A DNA stretch of 38,574 nucleotides, from the NCBI GenBank assembly GCA_949127665.1, contig CASBQE010000351.1, positions 1 through 38,574 on the forward strand. Reading direction: 5' to 3'. The stretch comes from Synechococcales cyanobacterium PMM_0083. Its GTDB lineage: Bacteria > Cyanobacteriota > Cyanobacteriia > Leptolyngbyales > Leptolyngbyaceae. Under the pieces are notes generated by a model. That model was not told the origin of the DNA. It saw nothing but the letters and a program-made list of their open reading frames with translations, and did not search any database. The position numbers and the translations under genes are program-made. How positions within the stretch are numbered: the stretch's first letter is position 1; every line of letters starts with the position of its first letter. Shown here one piece after another: positions 31,864 to 38,515 of the stretch.

Positions 31864-32433
31864 TCAGTTTCTCGCATTTAAAACCTGAGATGCCGTCAGT
31901 GTGAGGGCAAATACAAAGGATAGGATTACCGCATCATCCTGATAAACCTGTTCCTCGTATAGACCATCCACCCACTGCAAAATTGTCACTTTCTGGGCGA
32001 TCGCATCCACAATCCAATACTCAGAAATCTGCCGTCCTGCATACTCGGTGCGTTTATAGCGATAATCGCGGGTTTCCTGTTTCGGGCTAACCACCTCAAC
32101 CACCAATAACGGCGGCGGCATATCCTGAGTAATCAGGCAATGAGTTGCCCCTTCTAATGCAGCCGCAGTTTCTTCTGATAGCACCATCAAGTCAGGTTCT
32201 CGTGCCGTTGCCCGTGCCCCACTGACTGCAATCTGCGCTCCCATTCTCAAACAGTAATAGGAAACCCCGCTTTGCAGAAAGATGGCAAACAGGAAGGAGG
32301 CAATCCGGTTGTTTAAGTCACTCTCCGTAGGCATGGCAATCAGTTCCCCGTTGACCAGTTCATAGCGGGTATCGCTGCCATCGTCATAGGTCAAGTATTC
32401 CTCGATCGTCATGGGTTTCGTGGTGACAGTCAT
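31864..32433 (-). CDS. Uma2 family (DUF820) putative endonuclease
   Basis: MTIEEYLTYDDGSDTRYELVNGELIAMP...REPDLMVLSEE...PPLLVVEVVSPKQETRDYRYKRTEYAGRQISEYWIVDA. Confidence 0.95.
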   Translation of the reverse strand: MTVTTKPMTIEEYLTYDDGSDTRYELVNGELIAMPTESDLNNRIASFLFAIFLQSGVSYYCLRMGAQIAVSGARATAREPDLMVLSEETAAALEGATHCLITQDMPPPLLVVEVVSPKQETRDYRYKRTEYAGRQISEYWIVDAIAQKVTILQWVDGLYEEQVYQDDAVILSFVFALTLTASQVLNARN

Positions 32434-32511
32434 GGCGTTTAGCGAGATGGGCTGTTTATTCTAGCTATTCCTATGATACTGGTTGAGTTGCCCAGCTAAG
32501 GGCGATCGCTA

Positions 32512-32618
32512 CTGCTGACCGCTGGGTTTCCGCTATTTCCTACTCCCGGTTTTCACGCCCTGCTGTTACCTAAATGGTGTGCGATTCTCCCACGGAGAGG
32601 CTTCGCCAACGCAAAGCG
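32512..32618 (+). repeat. Repeat copy A: decayed CHAT-leader/signal-peptide module
   Basis: CTGCTGACCGCTGGG...TACTCCCGGTTTTCACGCCCTGCTGTT...TGTGCGATTCTCCCACGGAGAGGCTTCGCCAACGCAAAGCG, similar to copies B-D. Confidence 0.75.
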
Positions 32619-32636
32619 ATCGCTCTGAGCATGAGG

Positions 32637-33044
32637 CTAATTCATCAAAATTGAATTCAGTTCAGAGTACCGAGAGAACATCCTATCGATGCTTGCAAGT
32701 TTGGCATTGGCGTTAATTGCCGTAGCGATGATCAAACGATCAAAGGGATCTCGATGGATAGGGGATAAGTTTACCGCTCGATAAGCAATCTCAGCCGTGA
32801 TCGGAAACAATGAAATCCCTGATGGCTCTAGCGCTTCCTGAAGCCAAAGATCGACTTCACAAGAAAGTTCTAAGCGCCCACGCTGATGCGCCATCGCTAC
32901 TTCAAAACAAGAAATGGGTGATATTCCTACTTGGTCAGCAGTTTCGATCGCATCCCGCCAATATGCGGGGAATCGCTCAAATTCCTGAGTCAGAAACCAA
33001 ACCCAAATATGGGTATCCAGGATAATTATTTGAGACATTCCCAA
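32637..33044 (-). CDS. PIN domain (VapC-like) toxin
   Basis: IIILDTHIWVWFLTQEFERFPAYWRDAIETAD...GISPISCFEVAMAHQRGRLEL...HRDPFDRLIIATAI. Confidence 0.92.
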   Translation of the reverse strand: MGMSQIIILDTHIWVWFLTQEFERFPAYWRDAIETADQVGISPISCFEVAMAHQRGRLELSCEVDLWLQEALEPSGISLFPITAEIAYRAVNLSPIHRDPFDRLIIATAINANAKLASIDRMFSRYSELNSILMN

Positions 33045-33256
33045 TCTTGTTCATCCACAATGGGGCTGACTAAATCACCTACTGTTCTGCCTTGACCTGC
33101 GATCGCGGGTGCGGCAGTTCGTCGCTGCGATCGCGGTACTTCTGCTCTTGCTTCTAAGATTGTCACAATCACACGCGCAGACTGTACATTTGGCTGGTCT
33201 GCGACCCAAATCATCTGCCCATTTTCAAAAATCGCCTCATAGCTTTTAAGCATCAT
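33026..33256 (-). CDS. Antitoxin paired with the PIN toxin
   Basis: MLKSYEAIFENGQMIWVADQPNVQSARVIVTILE; overlaps the PIN ORF start. Confidence 0.75.
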   Translation of the reverse strand: MMLKSYEAIFENGQMIWVADQPNVQSARVIVTILEARAEVPRSQRRTAAPAIAGQGRTVGDLVSPIVDEQDWECLK

Positions 33257-33429
33257 GCCTCACTCATGCTTTTTCCCAATCTTACCTGGAGTTACGCGAT
33301 CTACTTTTTATCGCGCCAATATTGCGCGTCAGTTGGCAGAGTTAGCGGTAACTCTGGCGGAGATGGAAGCTGAAGTTGCGAGAGACTTTACAGAAAACAA
33401 TTCTTCTAGCACGGCGGCATAAGGCATTC

Positions 33430-33720
33430 AGATCTCTGACTTCTTGACCTCACCCTAAGTTGCCTGTACTGCTTCACAGAAGTCGGAGATCTTTGTAAAA
33501 TGCTGCATAATTTTTGGGTGAGGGGATGATAGATTTGCAGTCGATACCTCCACTGCCAAATCTCTCATGCCACCCATCCAGCCTCTCCGCCTTGCGGCTG
33601 TGGCGTTCCTGCTGACCGCTGGGCTTCCCCTACTCCCCGCTCCCAATTTTCCACTCCCCGCTGTTGCTCAAACGATGCGCGATTCTCCCACGGAGATGCT
33701 TCGCCAACGCAAAGCAGAGG
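33430..33720 (+). repeat. Repeat copy B: hairpin + leader + signal-peptide module
   Basis: AGATCTCTGACTTCT...AGAAGTCGGAGATCT inverted repeat (33430-33444/33478-33492), TGCTGCATAATTTTTGGGTGAGGGGATGATAGATTTGCAGTC, then the coding segment MPPIQPLRLAAVAFLLTAGLPLLPAPNFPLPAVAQTMRDSPTEMLRQRKAE. Confidence 0.9.
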
Positions 33721-33953
33721 AATCGTCAGTTAAATCAGTGAATGGGTCTCACCATCACAATATGAAAGAACTTCGGTTTGATGCAATGGATGGGGTTTGG
33801 CGAGTTGCGTTTGCGTTTGATCCGGAGCGCCGGGCAATTCTGTTTGTAGCAGGCGACAAGTCAGGAATCAGTCAAAAGCAATTTTATAAGAAACTAATTA
33901 GGAAAGCGGACGAACGCTTTGATCAGCATCTAGAGCAACTGAGGAAAAAGTAG
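33567..33953 (+). CDS. Chimeric ORF: CHAT-type signal peptide fused to the C-terminal half of a HigB/Gp49-like toxin
   Basis: Residues 1-51 match the N-termini at 35924 and 35017; residues after ~52, SVNGSHHHNMKELRFDAMDGVWRVAFAFDPERRAILFVAGDKSGISQKQFYKKLIRKADERFDQHLEQLRKK, resemble the C-terminal part of Gp49-family toxins. Confidence 0.8.
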   Translation: MPPIQPLRLAAVAFLLTAGLPLLPAPNFPLPAVAQTMRDSPTEMLRQRKAEESSVKSVNGSHHHNMKELRFDAMDGVWRVAFAFDPERRAILFVAGDKSGISQKQFYKKLIRKADERFDQHLEQLRKK

Positions 33954-34276
33954 TGATGGTGAATCCGTTAGGAAACAAGTTGAGTCATCTTCCTGAAAAG
34001 CGGCGTGAAACGATTCAGGCAAGGGCTGAGCAGTTAATTGCTGAGGAACTATCGCTACGGGATTTGCGGTTGGCGCGTAAGCTGACTCAGGAAAAACTAG
34101 CAGAGTTGCTTCACATTCGACAGGAAAGTGTATCGCGGATTGAAAAACGCTCTGATTTACATTTGTCTACCCTTCGGGAATTTGTTAAGGCAATGGGAGG
34201 TGAATTACGTTTAGTGGTCGAGTTTCTTGATCGCCCACCCATTATTCTCTCTGGTTTTCAAGATCTACCGGAATAA
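33953..34276 (+). CDS. HigA-like XRE-family antitoxin
   Basis: SLRDLRLARKLTQEKLAELLHIRQESVSRIEKRSDLHLSTLREFVKAMGGELRLVVEF; ORF overlaps the toxin stop by one base, with an alternative ATG next to it. Confidence 0.9.
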   Translation: MMVNPLGNKLSHLPEKRRETIQARAEQLIAEELSLRDLRLARKLTQEKLAELLHIRQESVSRIEKRSDLHLSTLREFVKAMGGELRLVVEFLDRPPIILSGFQDLPE

Positions 34277-34285
34277 GCTTAATTA

Positions 34286-34735
34286 ATGAGAGTTTATCTG
34301 GATACCAGTGCCCTTAATCGAATTTTTGACGATCAATCTCAGGCAAGGATTTACCTGGAGGCAACGTCTATGCAGATAATTTTTCTGGCGGTTGAAAGTG
34401 GCGCTGTAGAGTTGATTCACTCAGGTGCTTTGGTATTTGAAACGGACAGAAATCCTTACAGCGATCGCCAAACCTTTGTTCGCCAAGTCCTTCAAAAAGC
34501 AATTGCCTTTCAGGAAATTGACCAGTCTGTATTAATTGCTGCTCAAGAAATTGAGACCCGCGATAGGATCAGGGGTGTTGATGCGTTGCACCTTGCCTAC
34601 GCCGAGAAATCGGTCGCTGACTACTTTGTGACCTGCGATGACCGCATGATCCGAAAGTACAGCGGTAACGTCGTAACAATAACGCCAATTGAGCTTGCGG
34701 TTCTGTTCTCTACTATTCAAAGCCAGGAGCCTTAA
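34286..34735 (+). CDS. PIN domain protein (putative toxin)
   Basis: MRVYLDTSALNRIFDDQSQARI...RIRGVDALHLAYAEKSVADYFVTCDDRMIRKY. Confidence 0.85.
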   Translation: MRVYLDTSALNRIFDDQSQARIYLEATSMQIIFLAVESGAVELIHSGALVFETDRNPYSDRQTFVRQVLQKAIAFQEIDQSVLIAAQEIETRDRIRGVDALHLAYAEKSVADYFVTCDDRMIRKYSGNVVTITPIELAVLFSTIQSQEP

Positions 34736-34741
34736 ATAACT

Positions 34742-34957
34742 ATGACTAGACTAGCCGTTCCTACAAGTGATGTCGTGAAGTCTGAAGCTATTAAGGTGCT
34801 AATAGAGCAGCTAGGGATTGGTAAGGCAGCTTTCTTTATCCGGGAAACGATGGCGCAACCTGTAGATTATTTGAAGCTCAAGGATCAACTGTTTGGAACT
34901 ATGACTGTGAGCAATGTTTATGATGAAATCCAACGAGATCAGCAAAACCGTGAGTAA
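34742..34957 (+). CDS. Small hypothetical protein, putative partner of the PIN protein
   Basis: 71 aa starting 7 nt after the PIN stop; MTRLAVPTSDVVKSEAIKVLIEQLGIGKAAFFIRETMAQPVDYLKLKDQLFGTMTVSNVYDEI. Confidence 0.65.
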   Translation: MTRLAVPTSDVVKSEAIKVLIEQLGIGKAAFFIRETMAQPVDYLKLKDQLFGTMTVSNVYDEIQRDQQNRE

Positions 34958-34969
34958 TTTCTTGCTTGG

Positions 34970-35170
34970 AGGGTGATAGATTTGCAGTCAACGCTTTCCA
35001 CCGCAAAAATCCTCCCATGCTACCCATCCAGACTCTCGGACTTGCGGCTGTGACGCTCCTGCTGACTTCTAGAGTTCCCCTACTCCCCGCTCCCAATTTT
35101 CCACTCCCTACTGCTGTTCAAGTGGTGCGCGATTCTCCCACGGAGAGGCTTCCCCAACGCAAAGCGGAAG
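34970..35170 (+). repeat. Repeat copy C: leader + signal-peptide module without hairpin
   Basis: GGGTGATAGATTTGCAGTCAACGC...ATGCTACCCATCCAGACTCTCGGACTTGCGGCTGTGACGCTCCTGCTGAC...; encodes MLPIQTLGLAAVTLLLTSRVPLLPAPNFPLPTAVQVVRDSPTERLPQRKAE, then an early stop. Confidence 0.9.
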
Positions 35171-35198
35171 CTCAAAACTTTGCAGTGTTTCAGGCTGA

Positions 35199-35489
35199 TT
35201 AGGTAGGAAGTGGATTGTGTCGAATATAGTCAGACAAAGCGGCATTGATCAGAGCTTGATAGCCTTGATTACCTGCTTGATGCTTGAAGTATTCAATCAC
35301 CAATGTATCCAGCACAACCACTGATTGCTGATTCCGATCCACTGGAACTCTGCCAACTCGAAGAACTGCCTGCGCCATTTGAGTTTCAGTGACTTCAGGA
35401 ATGTCTGATAGATCAATGTCTTCATCCGACATGGCATGAATCCGCTCCCAATTAGTTTGAGAGGTTTTGGAAGAAGATGAGTTGTTCAC
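35199..35489 (-). CDS. brnA: BrnA family antitoxin
   Basis: MSDEDIDLSDIPEVTETQMAQAVLRVGRVPVDRNQQSVVVLDTLVIEYFKHQAGNQGYQALINAALSDYIRHN; ORF to 35528, probable GTG start at 35489 overlapping BrnT. Confidence 0.82.
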   Translation of the reverse strand: MNNSSSSKTSQTNWERIHAMSDEDIDLSDIPEVTETQMAQAVLRVGRVPVDRNQQSVVVLDTLVIEYFKHQAGNQGYQALINAALSDYIRHNPLPT

Positions 35490-35727
35490 GTTTGGTTCCT
35501 CTTCGCATTGAAATAACACGGATTTCATTGTTAGCTTCGGTATGAGCGATCGCCACCAAGATTTGATCTAATACACCAAGGGTGACAAAACGCTGCTCTC
35601 GGTAGGCAAAGCGATCGTCCTCATAGGTAAACGTTGCACCTGTAAAGACAGTTTCAGCATCGGCAAAATCAAACCCATGTTTCGCCAAGTTTGATTGACG
35701 CTTGTTGTCATCCCAGATGAATCGCAT
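35452..35727 (-). CDS. brnT: BrnT family toxin
   Basis: MRFIWDDNKRQSNLAKHGFDFADAETVFTGATFTYEDDRFAYREQRFVTLGVLDQILVAIAHTEANNEIRVISMRRGTKRE; true start at 35727, inside the longer 35452-36063 ORF. Confidence 0.93.
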   Translation of the reverse strand: MRFIWDDNKRQSNLAKHGFDFADAETVFTGATFTYEDDRFAYREQRFVTLGVLDQILVAIAHTEANNEIRVISMRRGTKREQLIFFQNLSN

Positions 35728-35791
35728 AGCCTTACTATACCTGCAATGTAATATATCGAGATCTTTGCCTGAAGTTGGCTGTATGGCATCT

Positions 35792-35852
35792 AGATCTCCG
35801 ACTTCTTGACCTCGCCCTAAGTTGCCTGTATGCCCCCAGAAGTCGGAGATCT
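35792..35852. repeat. Long hairpin element (15-bp perfect arms)
   Basis: AGATCTCCGACTTCT (35792-35806) ... AGAAGTCGGAGATCT (35838-35852); same element at 33430-33492. Confidence 0.9.
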
Positions 35853-35923
35853 TCATGAAAGCTGCATAATTTTTGGGTGAGAGGATGATAGATTTGCAGT
35901 CAATGCTTTCACGGCAAAATTTC

Positions 35924-38515
35924 ATGCAACCCATCCAGACTCTCCGACTTGCGGCTGTGACGCTCCTGCTGACCGCTGGGGTTCCCCTCCTTCCCGCTCC
36001 CAATTTTCTACTCCCTGCTGTTGCCCAAACTACCCCAGAGCGCAAAACTGAGGATGGTGGCAAAGCCTCACAGGAAGCAAATCGGCTGCTGAACCAAGGA
36101 ACGCAGCAATATCAAACGAGCCAATATCAAGCAGCATTGCAGTCCTGGGAACAGGCATTAGCGATCTTTCAGTCAATTAAAGACCGCAATGGAGAAGCTG
36201 CGGCGCTGACTAATTTAGGGATTGCCTATCGTTCTCTGTCGCGGTTCAACCAAGCGATCGAGTACCATCAACAAGCTTTATCGATTTTTCAGGCAGTGGG
36301 CAATCGTAATGGGGAAGCTGCGGCGCTAAATAGTCTAGGGATTGCCTACCGTTCTCTGTCGCAGTACAACAAAGCGATTGAGTTCTATCAAAAGGCATTA
36401 CCGATCTTTCGAGCAGTGCAGGATCGCAACAGGGAAGCTACTGCGCTGACTAATTTAGGGGGTGCCTACGGTTATCTAGCGCAGCACAACAAAGAGATCG
36501 AGTACCATCAACAGGCATTACCAATCTTTCGGGCAGTGGGTAATAACAACGGAGAAGCTATGGCGCTGATGAATCTAAGTGCTGCCTACGGGTCTTTGTC
36601 GCGATACAACAAAGCCATTGAGTACTCTCAGCAAGCCTTATCAATTTTTCGGGCAGTGGGCGATCGGAACGGAGAAGCTATAGCGCTGATAAATCTAGGT
36701 ACTGCTCATGCTGATCTATCAAAGTACAACAAAGCGATCGAGTACCATCAACAGGCATTACCGATTTTTCAGGCAGTGGGCGATCGCAACAGGGAAGCGA
36801 GTGCGCTAATGAAGCTAGGTTCTGCCTACAATTCTCTATCCCAGTACCCTAAAGCCCTTGAGTTCTATCAACAGGCATTACCCATTTTTCGAGCAGTGGG
36901 CGATCTCGAAGGGGAAGGAAATCTCTTGCACAATATGGGTCTTCTTCTCAACAAACAGAAGCAGCCAGAGTTGGCAATTATTTTCTACAAACAATCCGTC
37001 AACGTGCGGGAAACGATTCGGGAGCCACTCCGCACCCTTTCCCGTGAGTTGCAAGAATCCTATGCTCAATCGGTGTCTGGCACCTATCGTTCTCTGGCAG
37101 ATTTGCTGTTAGCGCAGGGGCGAATTCTGGAAGCACAGCAAGTGTTGGAACTGCTGAAAATCCAGGAGATTCGGGAATTTACCCGTGAGGCAAGAACGAC
37201 GACCTCGATGGGGATTGCGACGACGGCGAGTGAAGCCAAAATCCTCAAAGAACACGGCAGCTTGATCGCCTTTGGGCAAAAGGTGGATGCCTGTGAACAA
37301 AGCCGCTGTGACCAACTCAGCCAACTCAACGACCAACAGCAAGCCCTGACGCAGCAATACAACCAGACGGTTTCCAGCTTTGAGAAAGAAATCCGCCAGC
37401 GCAAATCGGTGGATGATGCCCTGTTCGATCCGCGCAACTTGTCGTCTAAAGCGAAGGAAATTGTGGAATCGCAACCGGGCACGGTGTTGATTTATCCCTT
37501 TGTGTTGGAAGACAAAATCTGGCTACTGTGGGCGGCAAAAGGCGGGATTGTCAAAACTGTGGCGGTGCCTGTTTCCCGGAGGCAGTTGGGGGAAACCGTG
37601 CTGAAGTTTCGTCAAGCGCTGCAAGACTCTAGTCCGACTGCGCGCCCAGCTATTGTCACGTCTGGCAAGCAACTGTATGACTGGCTGATCAAACCACTGG
37701 AATCAGAACTGAAGGCAAACAAGATTCAAAATCTGGTGTTCTCGCTGGATCGCGTCACCCGCTATATTCCCATGAGTGCCCTATTTGATGGCGAAAAATT
37801 TCTGATTGAAAACTATGCGGTTTCCACGGTGTTATCTGCCGAGTTGACGGATCTGCGCGACAGGCTACCCGCCAGCAACCAGACTTCCATTTTGGCGATG
37901 GGTGCATCGGAGTTTAAAGATGATCCGCCGTTGCCGAATGTGCCTGGGGAACTCAACGCGATTATTCAACAAACTCAATCGAGTTCTAAGTCAAACAGCG
38001 GCTTCTCTGGCTCAAAGTTCCTCAACCAGTCGTTTGACTTTCGCACCCTGCGAGACAATCTAAGCAAGCATAAAATTTTGCATATCGCCACTCACGGTAA
38101 GTTTGTTGCAGGTCGCTCGGAAGATTCCTTCCTGGTGTTGGGCACTAGCGAGAAACTCACCATTCCCGAAATCAAAACCCTGCGAAATTTAAGCAATATC
38201 CATCTGGTGGTGCTGTCTGCTTGCGAAACGGCGTTGGGCGGGGATCAAGATGGAATAGAAATCTCTGGGCTAAGCTCCTATTTCTTGAACAATGGTGCCA
38301 AAGCGGTGATGGCTTCTCTCTGGGTTGTGGATGATGCCAGTACGAGTGTACTGATGTCTGAGTTTTACCGTAGGCTGGCAAGCAGCACTGCCGAGAAACC
38401 GATGACCAAAGCTGAGGCGTTGCGTCAAGCTCAACTATCCCTCATCCGCGAGGGAGGCAATTTTGCCCGTCCTTACTTCTGGGCACCCTTTACCCTGATC
38501 GGCAATGGATTATAA
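35924..38515 (+). CDS. Secreted TPR-repeat CHAT-domain (caspase-like) protein
   Basis: Start MQPIQTLRLAAVTLLLTAGVPLLPAPNFLLPAVAQ (signal peptide); consecutive 40-aa TPRs (YNKAIEYHQQALPIFRAVGDRNGEA); CHAT core LHIATHGKF and LVVLSACETALGGDQDGIEISGLSSYFLNNGAKAVMASLWVVDD. Confidence 0.93.
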   Translation: MQPIQTLRLAAVTLLLTAGVPLLPAPNFLLPAVAQTTPERKTEDGGKASQEANRLLNQGTQQYQTSQYQAALQSWEQALAIFQSIKDRNGEAAALTNLGIAYRSLSRFNQAIEYHQQALSIFQAVGNRNGEAAALNSLGIAYRSLSQYNKAIEFYQKALPIFRAVQDRNREATALTNLGGAYGYLAQHNKEIEYHQQALPIFRAVGNNNGEAMALMNLSAAYGSLSRYNKAIEYSQQALSIFRAVGDRNGEAIALINLGTAHADLSKYNKAIEYHQQALPIFQAVGDRNREASALMKLGSAYNSLSQYPKALEFYQQALPIFRAVGDLEGEGNLLHNMGLLLNKQKQPELAIIFYKQSVNVRETIREPLRTLSRELQESYAQSVSGTYRSLADLLLAQGRILEAQQVLELLKIQEIREFTREARTTTSMGIATTASEAKILKEHGSLIAFGQKVDACEQSRCDQLSQLNDQQQALTQQYNQTVSSFEKEIRQRKSVDDALFDPRNLSSKAKEIVESQPGTVLIYPFVLEDKIWLLWAAKGGIVKTVAVPVSRRQLGETVLKFRQALQDSSPTARPAIVTSGKQLYDWLIKPLESELKANKIQNLVFSLDRVTRYIPMSALFDGEKFLIENYAVSTVLSAELTDLRDRLPASNQTSILAMGASEFKDDPPLPNVPGELNAIIQQTQSSSKSNSGFSGSKFLNQSFDFRTLRDNLSKHKILHIATHGKFVAGRSEDSFLVLGTSEKLTIPEIKTLRNLSNIHLVVLSACETALGGDQDGIEISGLSSYFLNNGAKAVMASLWVVDDASTSVLMSEFYRRLASSTAEKPMTKAEALRQAQLSLIREGGNFARPYFWAPFTLIGNGL
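36130..36930 (+). repeat. 120-bp coding tandem repeats (TPR array)
   Basis: Units such as AACAAAGCGATCGAGTACCATCAACAGGCATTACCGAT(C/T)TTTC(A/G)GGCAGTGGG recur every 120 bp. Confidence 0.9.

What the first reader, a model, noticed from the sequence alone, without database searches (positions are those of the whole stretch)
33567..33953. In-frame fusion of a secretory signal peptide to a truncated HigB/Gp49-like toxin
The ORF starts with the same ~50 aa as the secreted CHAT protein (signal peptide plus RDSPTEMLRQRKAE) and then runs in frame into ...SVNGSHHHNMKELRFDAMDGVWRVAFAFDPERRAILFVAGDK..., the C-terminal part of a Gp49-family RelE-like toxin. The toxin N-terminal half is missing while the HigA-like antitoxin (33953-34276) is intact. 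Either the module recombined into higB and inactivated it (leaving a solitary antitoxin), or it created an exported toxin-derived polypeptide.
Basis: partly seen in the sequence, partly recalled or inferred. Interest (0 to 1): 0.7.

Follow-up and report, generated by a model that had tools for sequence, protein, structure and literature searches.

The report
Broken toxin gene spliced to exporter leader
In this cyanobacterium a leftover copy of the front end of a secreted repeat-protein (TPR-CHAT) gene has been joined in frame to the back half of a HigB-type toxin gene, most likely leaving a dead toxin beside an intact antitoxin; it is a real genomic rearrangement but probably not a new kind of system.

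Summary
The chimeric ORF (33567-33953) is real. Its first ~37 codons are a copy of the signal-peptide end of a TPR-CHAT gene. Its last ~70 codons are the C-terminal part of a Gp49/HigB toxin (Pfam Gp49, profile 23-89 of 90). The first ~48 toxin residues (beta1-alpha1-alpha2 of the RelE-like fold) are gone. HigA downstream is intact.

One detail of the finding is wrong. 'RDSPTEMLRQRKAE' is not shared with the CHAT protein. 'SPTEMLRQ' is encoded by a 24-nt hairpin repeat inserted in a HIP1 site (GCGAT|CGC) of the leader, as reported for the cyanobacterial repeat SDR5. A sister copy in the same genome still has the empty HIP1 site.

DNA upstream (33307-33518) is collinear with DNA directly upstream of a signal-peptide TPR gene in another genus. 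So 33.4-33.7 kb was most likely a CHAT locus whose body was replaced by a 5'-truncated higBA. At least eight leader copies exist in the genome, and four sit between toxin-antitoxin pairs in this window. None of the other 385 genomes sampled from the phylum has the fusion.

Best reading: a recombination-born chimeric pseudogene, toxin inactive, HigA orphaned. An exported toxin-derived peptide is not excluded but has no positive support.

The parts
33307..33422 (+). 3' relic of a small ORF (...YRANIARQLAELAVTLAEMEAEVARDFT...) that in another genus (G012) lies directly upstream of a hairpin and a signal-peptide TPR gene
   Evidence: tblastn 69% over 32 aa; DNA 72% over 213 bp running on into the hairpin, E 8e-35
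33425..33520 (+). Hairpin block of the CHAT upstream leader (AGATCTCTGACTTCTT...AGAAGTCGGAGATCTT)
   Evidence: 89-90% identical copies before both intact TPR-CHAT genes of this genome and 82-83% copies in G012; folds at -24.5 kcal/mol, z -1.9
33567..33677 (+). Signal-peptide codons of the chimeric ORF (MPPIQPLRLAAVAFLLTAGLPLLPAPNFPLPAVAQTM), derived from a TPR-CHAT gene
   Evidence: alignment of eight copies; codon comparison
33684..33707 (+). 24-nt hairpin repeat TCTCCCACGGAGATGCTTCGCCAA inserted in a HIP1 site (GCGAT at 33679-33683, CGC at 33708-33710); encodes SPTEMLRQ
   Evidence: empty site GCGCGATCGCAAAGCAGAGG in copy C70c; 10 copies of the repeat in the genome, 0 for the control pattern
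33721..33740 (+). Junction interval between CHAT-derived sequence and toxin-derived sequence
   Evidence: identity with copy C70c ends at 33720; homology with intact toxins is clear from NGS at 33741
33741..33953 (+). C-terminal part of a Gp49/HigB toxin (beta2-beta3-beta4-alpha3); first ~48 toxin residues absent
   Evidence: Pfam Gp49; alignments; AlphaFold2 models of an intact relative and of the remnant
33953..34276 (+). HigA-like HTH antitoxin, intact; GTG start overlapping the chimera's stop codon, ATG at 33956
   Evidence: HTH_3, E 5e-9; homologues next to higB in 76 of 80 loci
34286..34735 (+). PIN-domain protein downstream of HigA
   Evidence: PF01850, E 3e-11
32507..32625 (+). Truncated orphan copy of the signal-peptide leader carrying the same 24-nt insert
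34950..35172 (+). Orphan leader copy carrying the same 24-nt insert; no CHAT body
35782..36030 (+). Leader and signal peptide of the intact TPR-CHAT gene (ATG at 35924; gene runs to 38515)
   Evidence: CHAT domain E 1.4e-65

Best explanation
The ORF is a chimeric pseudogene-like gene made by recombination. A duplicated TPR-CHAT locus (upstream ORF, hairpin leader, signal peptide, with a 24-nt SDR5-like repeat already inserted in its HIP1 site) lost its body just after codon 51, and a higBA operon lacking the 5' part of higB was joined there, by chance in frame. The toxin remnant lacks the N-terminal strand and helices of the RelE-like fold and would carry a signal peptide, so it should not act as a cytoplasmic ribonuclease. 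HigA remains as an orphan antitoxin, now perhaps transcribed from, and translationally coupled to, the CHAT leader. Shown by sequence: the composition, the insert, the junction and the upstream synteny. Inferred: the order of events, loss of toxicity, and transcription.
For: Partial Gp49 profile match. Intact homologues in many phyla carry the missing N-terminus. The model of an intact relative (pLDDT 94) places beta1, alpha1, alpha2 and a short strand (residues 4-47) entirely in the lost part, and Foldseek matches it to RelE/HigB toxins. Eight leader copies in the genome have ragged ends and only two lead into TPR-CHAT genes. DNA at 33307-33518 is collinear with the upstream region of a signal-peptide TPR gene in G012. 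The fusion is absent from 385 other genomes of the phylum and no higB relative is present in the other 41 genomes of the family. Comparable 5'-replaced or N-terminally truncated higB relics lie beside dispersed repeats in G108 and G110, with damaged higA.
Against: The C-terminal part is not visibly decaying: no stop or frameshift, and only one change at strongly conserved positions away from the junction, within the range of intact toxins. The signal-peptide codons of this copy have pN/pS ~0.5 relative to CHAT, like CHAT against CHAT, whereas the orphan copy at 35.0 kb has ~0.8-0.9 (only 37 codons). Either the fusion is recent or it is retained. No transcription or protein data exist.
Confidence: 0.8

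Rival explanations
1. The fusion makes a functional exported polypeptide: the Sec signal peptide delivers a RelE-core fragment to the periplasm or outside, where it has a new role.
For: Classic n-h-c layout with AVAQ-type end, by eye; open frame; conserved C-terminal residues; signal-peptide codon pattern like the CHAT genes; the 78-aa remnant is predicted to fold as a sheet plus helix, pLDDT 84.
Against: Found in one genome only; the remnant lacks the N-terminal strand and helices and is predicted with lower confidence than the intact toxin; an in-frame join has a one-in-three chance; many sister leader copies lead nowhere.
Confidence: 0.08
2. What matters is retained expression of HigA (and of the PIN gene): the CHAT leader acts as a captured promoter and ribosome-entry region, with the chimera as a translational feeder; HigA serves as an anti-addiction antitoxin or a stand-alone repressor.
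For: The chimera's stop codon overlaps the HigA start; HigA is intact; the leader comes from an apparently functional gene.
Against: The only promoter-like site in the leader is no better than chance and is poorly conserved between copies. No cognate HigB remains in the genome: the only other Gp49 above cut-off, on contig C8, is too distant to match this HigB subfamily.
Confidence: 0.1
3. Assembly chimera: two unrelated loci joined at the repeat.
For: The genome is a fragmented draft (484 contigs), and contigs C17 and C70 end in or near these repeats.
Against: At the junction the longest exact match to any other leader copy is 21 nt, and 34 nt over the whole 33401-33760 stretch. Copies are only 75-87% identical. 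The upstream synteny and the downstream higA-PIN order are coherent.
Confidence: 0.05

Closest known systems
HigB/Gp49 (PF05973) - HigA type II toxin-antitoxin pairs
   Same: 64-75% identity over the C-terminal ~75 residues; toxin-antitoxin gene order; intact HTH antitoxin
   Different: N-terminal ~48 residues (beta1-alpha1-alpha2) replaced by a signal peptide
Secreted TPR-CHAT proteins of cyanobacteria
   Same: Leader hairpin and signal peptide closely similar to the intact genes at 35.9 kb and on contig C17
   Different: No TPR and no CHAT domain follows
SDR5, small dispersed repeat inserted in HIP1 sites (Elhai et al. 2008, cited in PMC4390886)
   Same: 24-nt hairpin repeat inside a HIP1 octamer, present elsewhere in the genome
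   Different: The published consensus could not be read here. The exact insertion point in HIP1 fits nt 5/6 best; nt 3/4, as reported for SDR5, needs one substitution. The other copies in this genome are not in clear HIP1 sites
MaOC1 orthocaspase and toxin-antitoxin locus of Microcystis aeruginosa PCC 7806, fenced by direct repeats (PMC7935541)
   Same: A caspase-fold gene beside a RelE-superfamily toxin-antitoxin pair with direct repeats containing an inverted repeat
   Different: There the pair is intact and the repeats are non-coding; here the repeats are CHAT-gene leaders and the toxin is truncated

Membership tests
HigB/Gp49 toxin | Sequence match over the curated cut-off | tested here: met
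   50.5 bits against 23.9
HigB/Gp49 toxin | Complete RelE-like fold including N-terminal strand and helices | tested here: not met
   Homology starts near residue 49 of intact relatives; lost part = beta1, alpha1, alpha2
HigB/Gp49 toxin | Adjacent HigA antitoxin downstream | tested here: met
   33953-34276
HigB/Gp49 toxin | Toxicity relieved by HigA | not testable with these tools
   needs expression
Sec-exported protein | Cleavable signal peptide | tested here: inconclusive
   By-eye n/h/c regions and copy of the CHAT signal peptide; no SignalP tool available
TPR-CHAT protein | TPR repeats and CHAT domain | tested here: not met
   No match in the 128-aa ORF
SDR5 small dispersed repeat | Short repeat (24 nt here) inside a HIP1 octamer | tested here: met
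   Filled copies at 32.6, 33.7 and 35.1 kb against the empty site in C70c; HIP1 enriched, 77 against 0.7 expected
SDR5 small dispersed repeat | Published consensus sequence | not testable with these tools
   Elhai et al. 2008 is not held

The most novel reading that the evidence does not exclude
Leaders of CHAT genes act as repeated in-frame landing sites around which toxin-antitoxin cassettes are shuffled, and this process can create secreted toxin-derived proteins; the chimera would be an expressed, exported product of it.
Probability: 0.06. Interest if true: 0.65.

Novelty: new member of a known kind. Interest (0 to 1): 0.22.

Why it matters
It is a clean snapshot of how toxin-antitoxin loci in a cyanobacterium are broken and recombined with neighbouring gene leaders, and of how a 24-nt repeat can add eight residues to a reading frame without breaking it. 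If the product were made and exported, it would show a route from an intracellular toxin to a secreted protein. As it stands it warns against annotating such ORFs as secreted toxins.

Tried and rejected
Looked for an intact syntenic higBA in relatives: none in 41 other genomes of the family ('order' held the same genomes). Looked for the same fusion in 386 phylum genomes and in viral contigs: none. No Rfam match in 31.8-36.2 kb.

Considered that the breakpoint near 'NGS' is a recurrent hot spot because L138 and L145 break close to it. Rejected: other truncated copies break elsewhere and the query itself started at that point. Considered programmed frameshifting because six homologues shift frame near residues 33-44. 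Not pursued: the positions differ, and the ascertainment (intact C-terminal query) explains much of it.

A plasmid search found only C-terminal toxin matches. A strict hairpin pattern was too strict and found nothing, not even in the own genome.

Full report
Observation. The ORF 33567-33953 is present and open. It is a chimera. The N-terminal part belongs to a repeat family that also forms the 5' end of the TPR-CHAT gene starting at ATG 35924. The C-terminal part is Gp49/HigB (PF05973, 50.5 bits, profile 23-89 of 90). A HigA-like antitoxin follows with an overlapping start codon.

What the toxin has lost. A scan of genome contigs found 531 relatives of the C-terminal part. The aligned intact members start with ~48 further residues (M.W.VEFH..FE.EF..LPE.VQ..LLA...LLE.FG..LGRP.VDTL-NGS). 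The chimera departs at R, P, D, T and L just before NGS and then shows only one change at strongly conserved positions, no more than intact toxins. An intact relative is modelled at pLDDT 94 with strand 4-7, helices 9-17 and 20-39, strand 45-47, then strands 56-63, 66-74, 79-87 and helix 93-114. Its best Foldseek matches are RelE/HigB-type toxins: 6af4, 4fxe, 1wmi, 5ja8. The chimera therefore keeps the sheet and last helix and lacks the first strand and both N-terminal helices. The remnant alone is predicted as sheet plus helix at pLDDT 84.

What the front part is. The genome holds at least eight copies of the leader: four in the window, one on C17 before a second intact TPR-CHAT gene, and three on C70 without a CHAT body. 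Their ends are ragged. The peptide RDSPTEMLRQRKAE is not in either CHAT protein. In copy C70c the DNA reads GCGCGATCGCAAAGCAGAGG (RDRKAE). In the chimera it reads GCGCGAT + TCTCCCACGGAGATGCTTCGCCAA + CGCAAAGCAGAGG. So a 24-nt hairpin repeat sits in a HIP1 octamer. Related 24-nt repeats occur ten times in this genome, twice in the other species of the genus and nowhere in 40 other family genomes; the reversed control pattern gives none. The other copies in this genome do not lie in clear HIP1 sites. HIP1 is abundant here, 77 sites against 0.7 expected. The HIP1 review PMC4390886 reports that SDR5 inserts inside HIP1, between nt 3 and 4. The original SDR paper is not held, so identity with SDR5 proper rests on length, hairpin and HIP1 context. 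Copies at 32.6, 33.7 and 35.1 kb share the insert, so it predates the toxin fusion.

Direction of the event. Upstream of the chimera, 33307-33518 is collinear (72% over 213 bp, E 8e-35) with DNA in G012, a different genus. There the same small-ORF 3' end and hairpin lie directly upstream of a signal-peptide TPR gene. The 33.4-33.7 kb stretch is therefore best read as the front of a former CHAT locus. Its body was replaced by a 5'-truncated higBA after codon ~51, at 33721-33740. No 5' half of this higB was seen upstream, in line with replacement rather than simple insertion into higB.

Rarity and artefact. In 386 genomes of the phylum only this one has a match spanning both parts. In the family no other genome has a relative of this toxin. 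Misassembly is unlikely: the longest exact repeat at the junction is 21 nt. Other cyanobacteria show higB remnants whose 5' part is missing or replaced next to dispersed repeats, with damaged higA, so decay of this kind is not unusual.

Function. The most likely state is an inactivated toxin with an orphan HigA. Export of a toxin-derived polypeptide is possible. The signal peptide is copied from genes that use it, and its codons differ from CHAT in the same manner as CHAT genes differ from each other, but with only 37 codons. The C-terminal frame is undamaged. Both facts also fit a recent event. Capture of the CHAT leader as promoter for higA is possible, but the promoter-like site found is at chance level.

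Setting. The four leader copies in the window alternate with toxin-antitoxin genes: a PIN pair, higBA plus PIN, and BrnTA. A caspase-fold gene beside a toxin-antitoxin pair fenced by direct repeats with an inverted repeat has been described in Microcystis (PMC7935541). Whether the leaders drive the shuffling or merely mark old gene copies cannot be decided from one genome.

Noticed in passing
window 31864-36063: Four same-orientation CHAT-leader copies alternate with toxin-antitoxin genes (PIN toxin with small partner, higBA remnant plus PIN, BrnTA) and a Uma2 gene; contig C70 shows three more leader copies among small toxin-antitoxin-like ORFs.
   Followed up: partly
L014 (G012 contig C364) 678-1585: Two hairpin copies like window 33425-33520 in another genus, one directly upstream of a signal-peptide TPR gene, with a PIN-toxin pair nearby; a third copy (L031) is intergenic with no CHAT gene.
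   Followed up: partly
L049, L086, L087, L103, L111, L139: Six HigB homologues have their N-terminal and C-terminal parts in different frames, each shift lying near toxin residues 33-44; ascertainment explains part of it, programmed frameshifting was not tested.
   Followed up: partly
L138 and L145: Other cyanobacterial higB genes cut off within a few codons of the same point, one directly after a palindromic dispersed repeat, with truncated higA.
   Followed up: partly
L124-L126 (contigs C16, C53): The 24-nt hairpin repeat also occurs in tandem within CCATTCGCCAT-type heptameric repeats.
   Followed up: no
L011 4739-5110: A papain-fold toxin 2 domain ORF (PF15643, E 3e-30) just downstream of an orphan CHAT leader and a small antitoxin-like ORF.
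   Followed up: no
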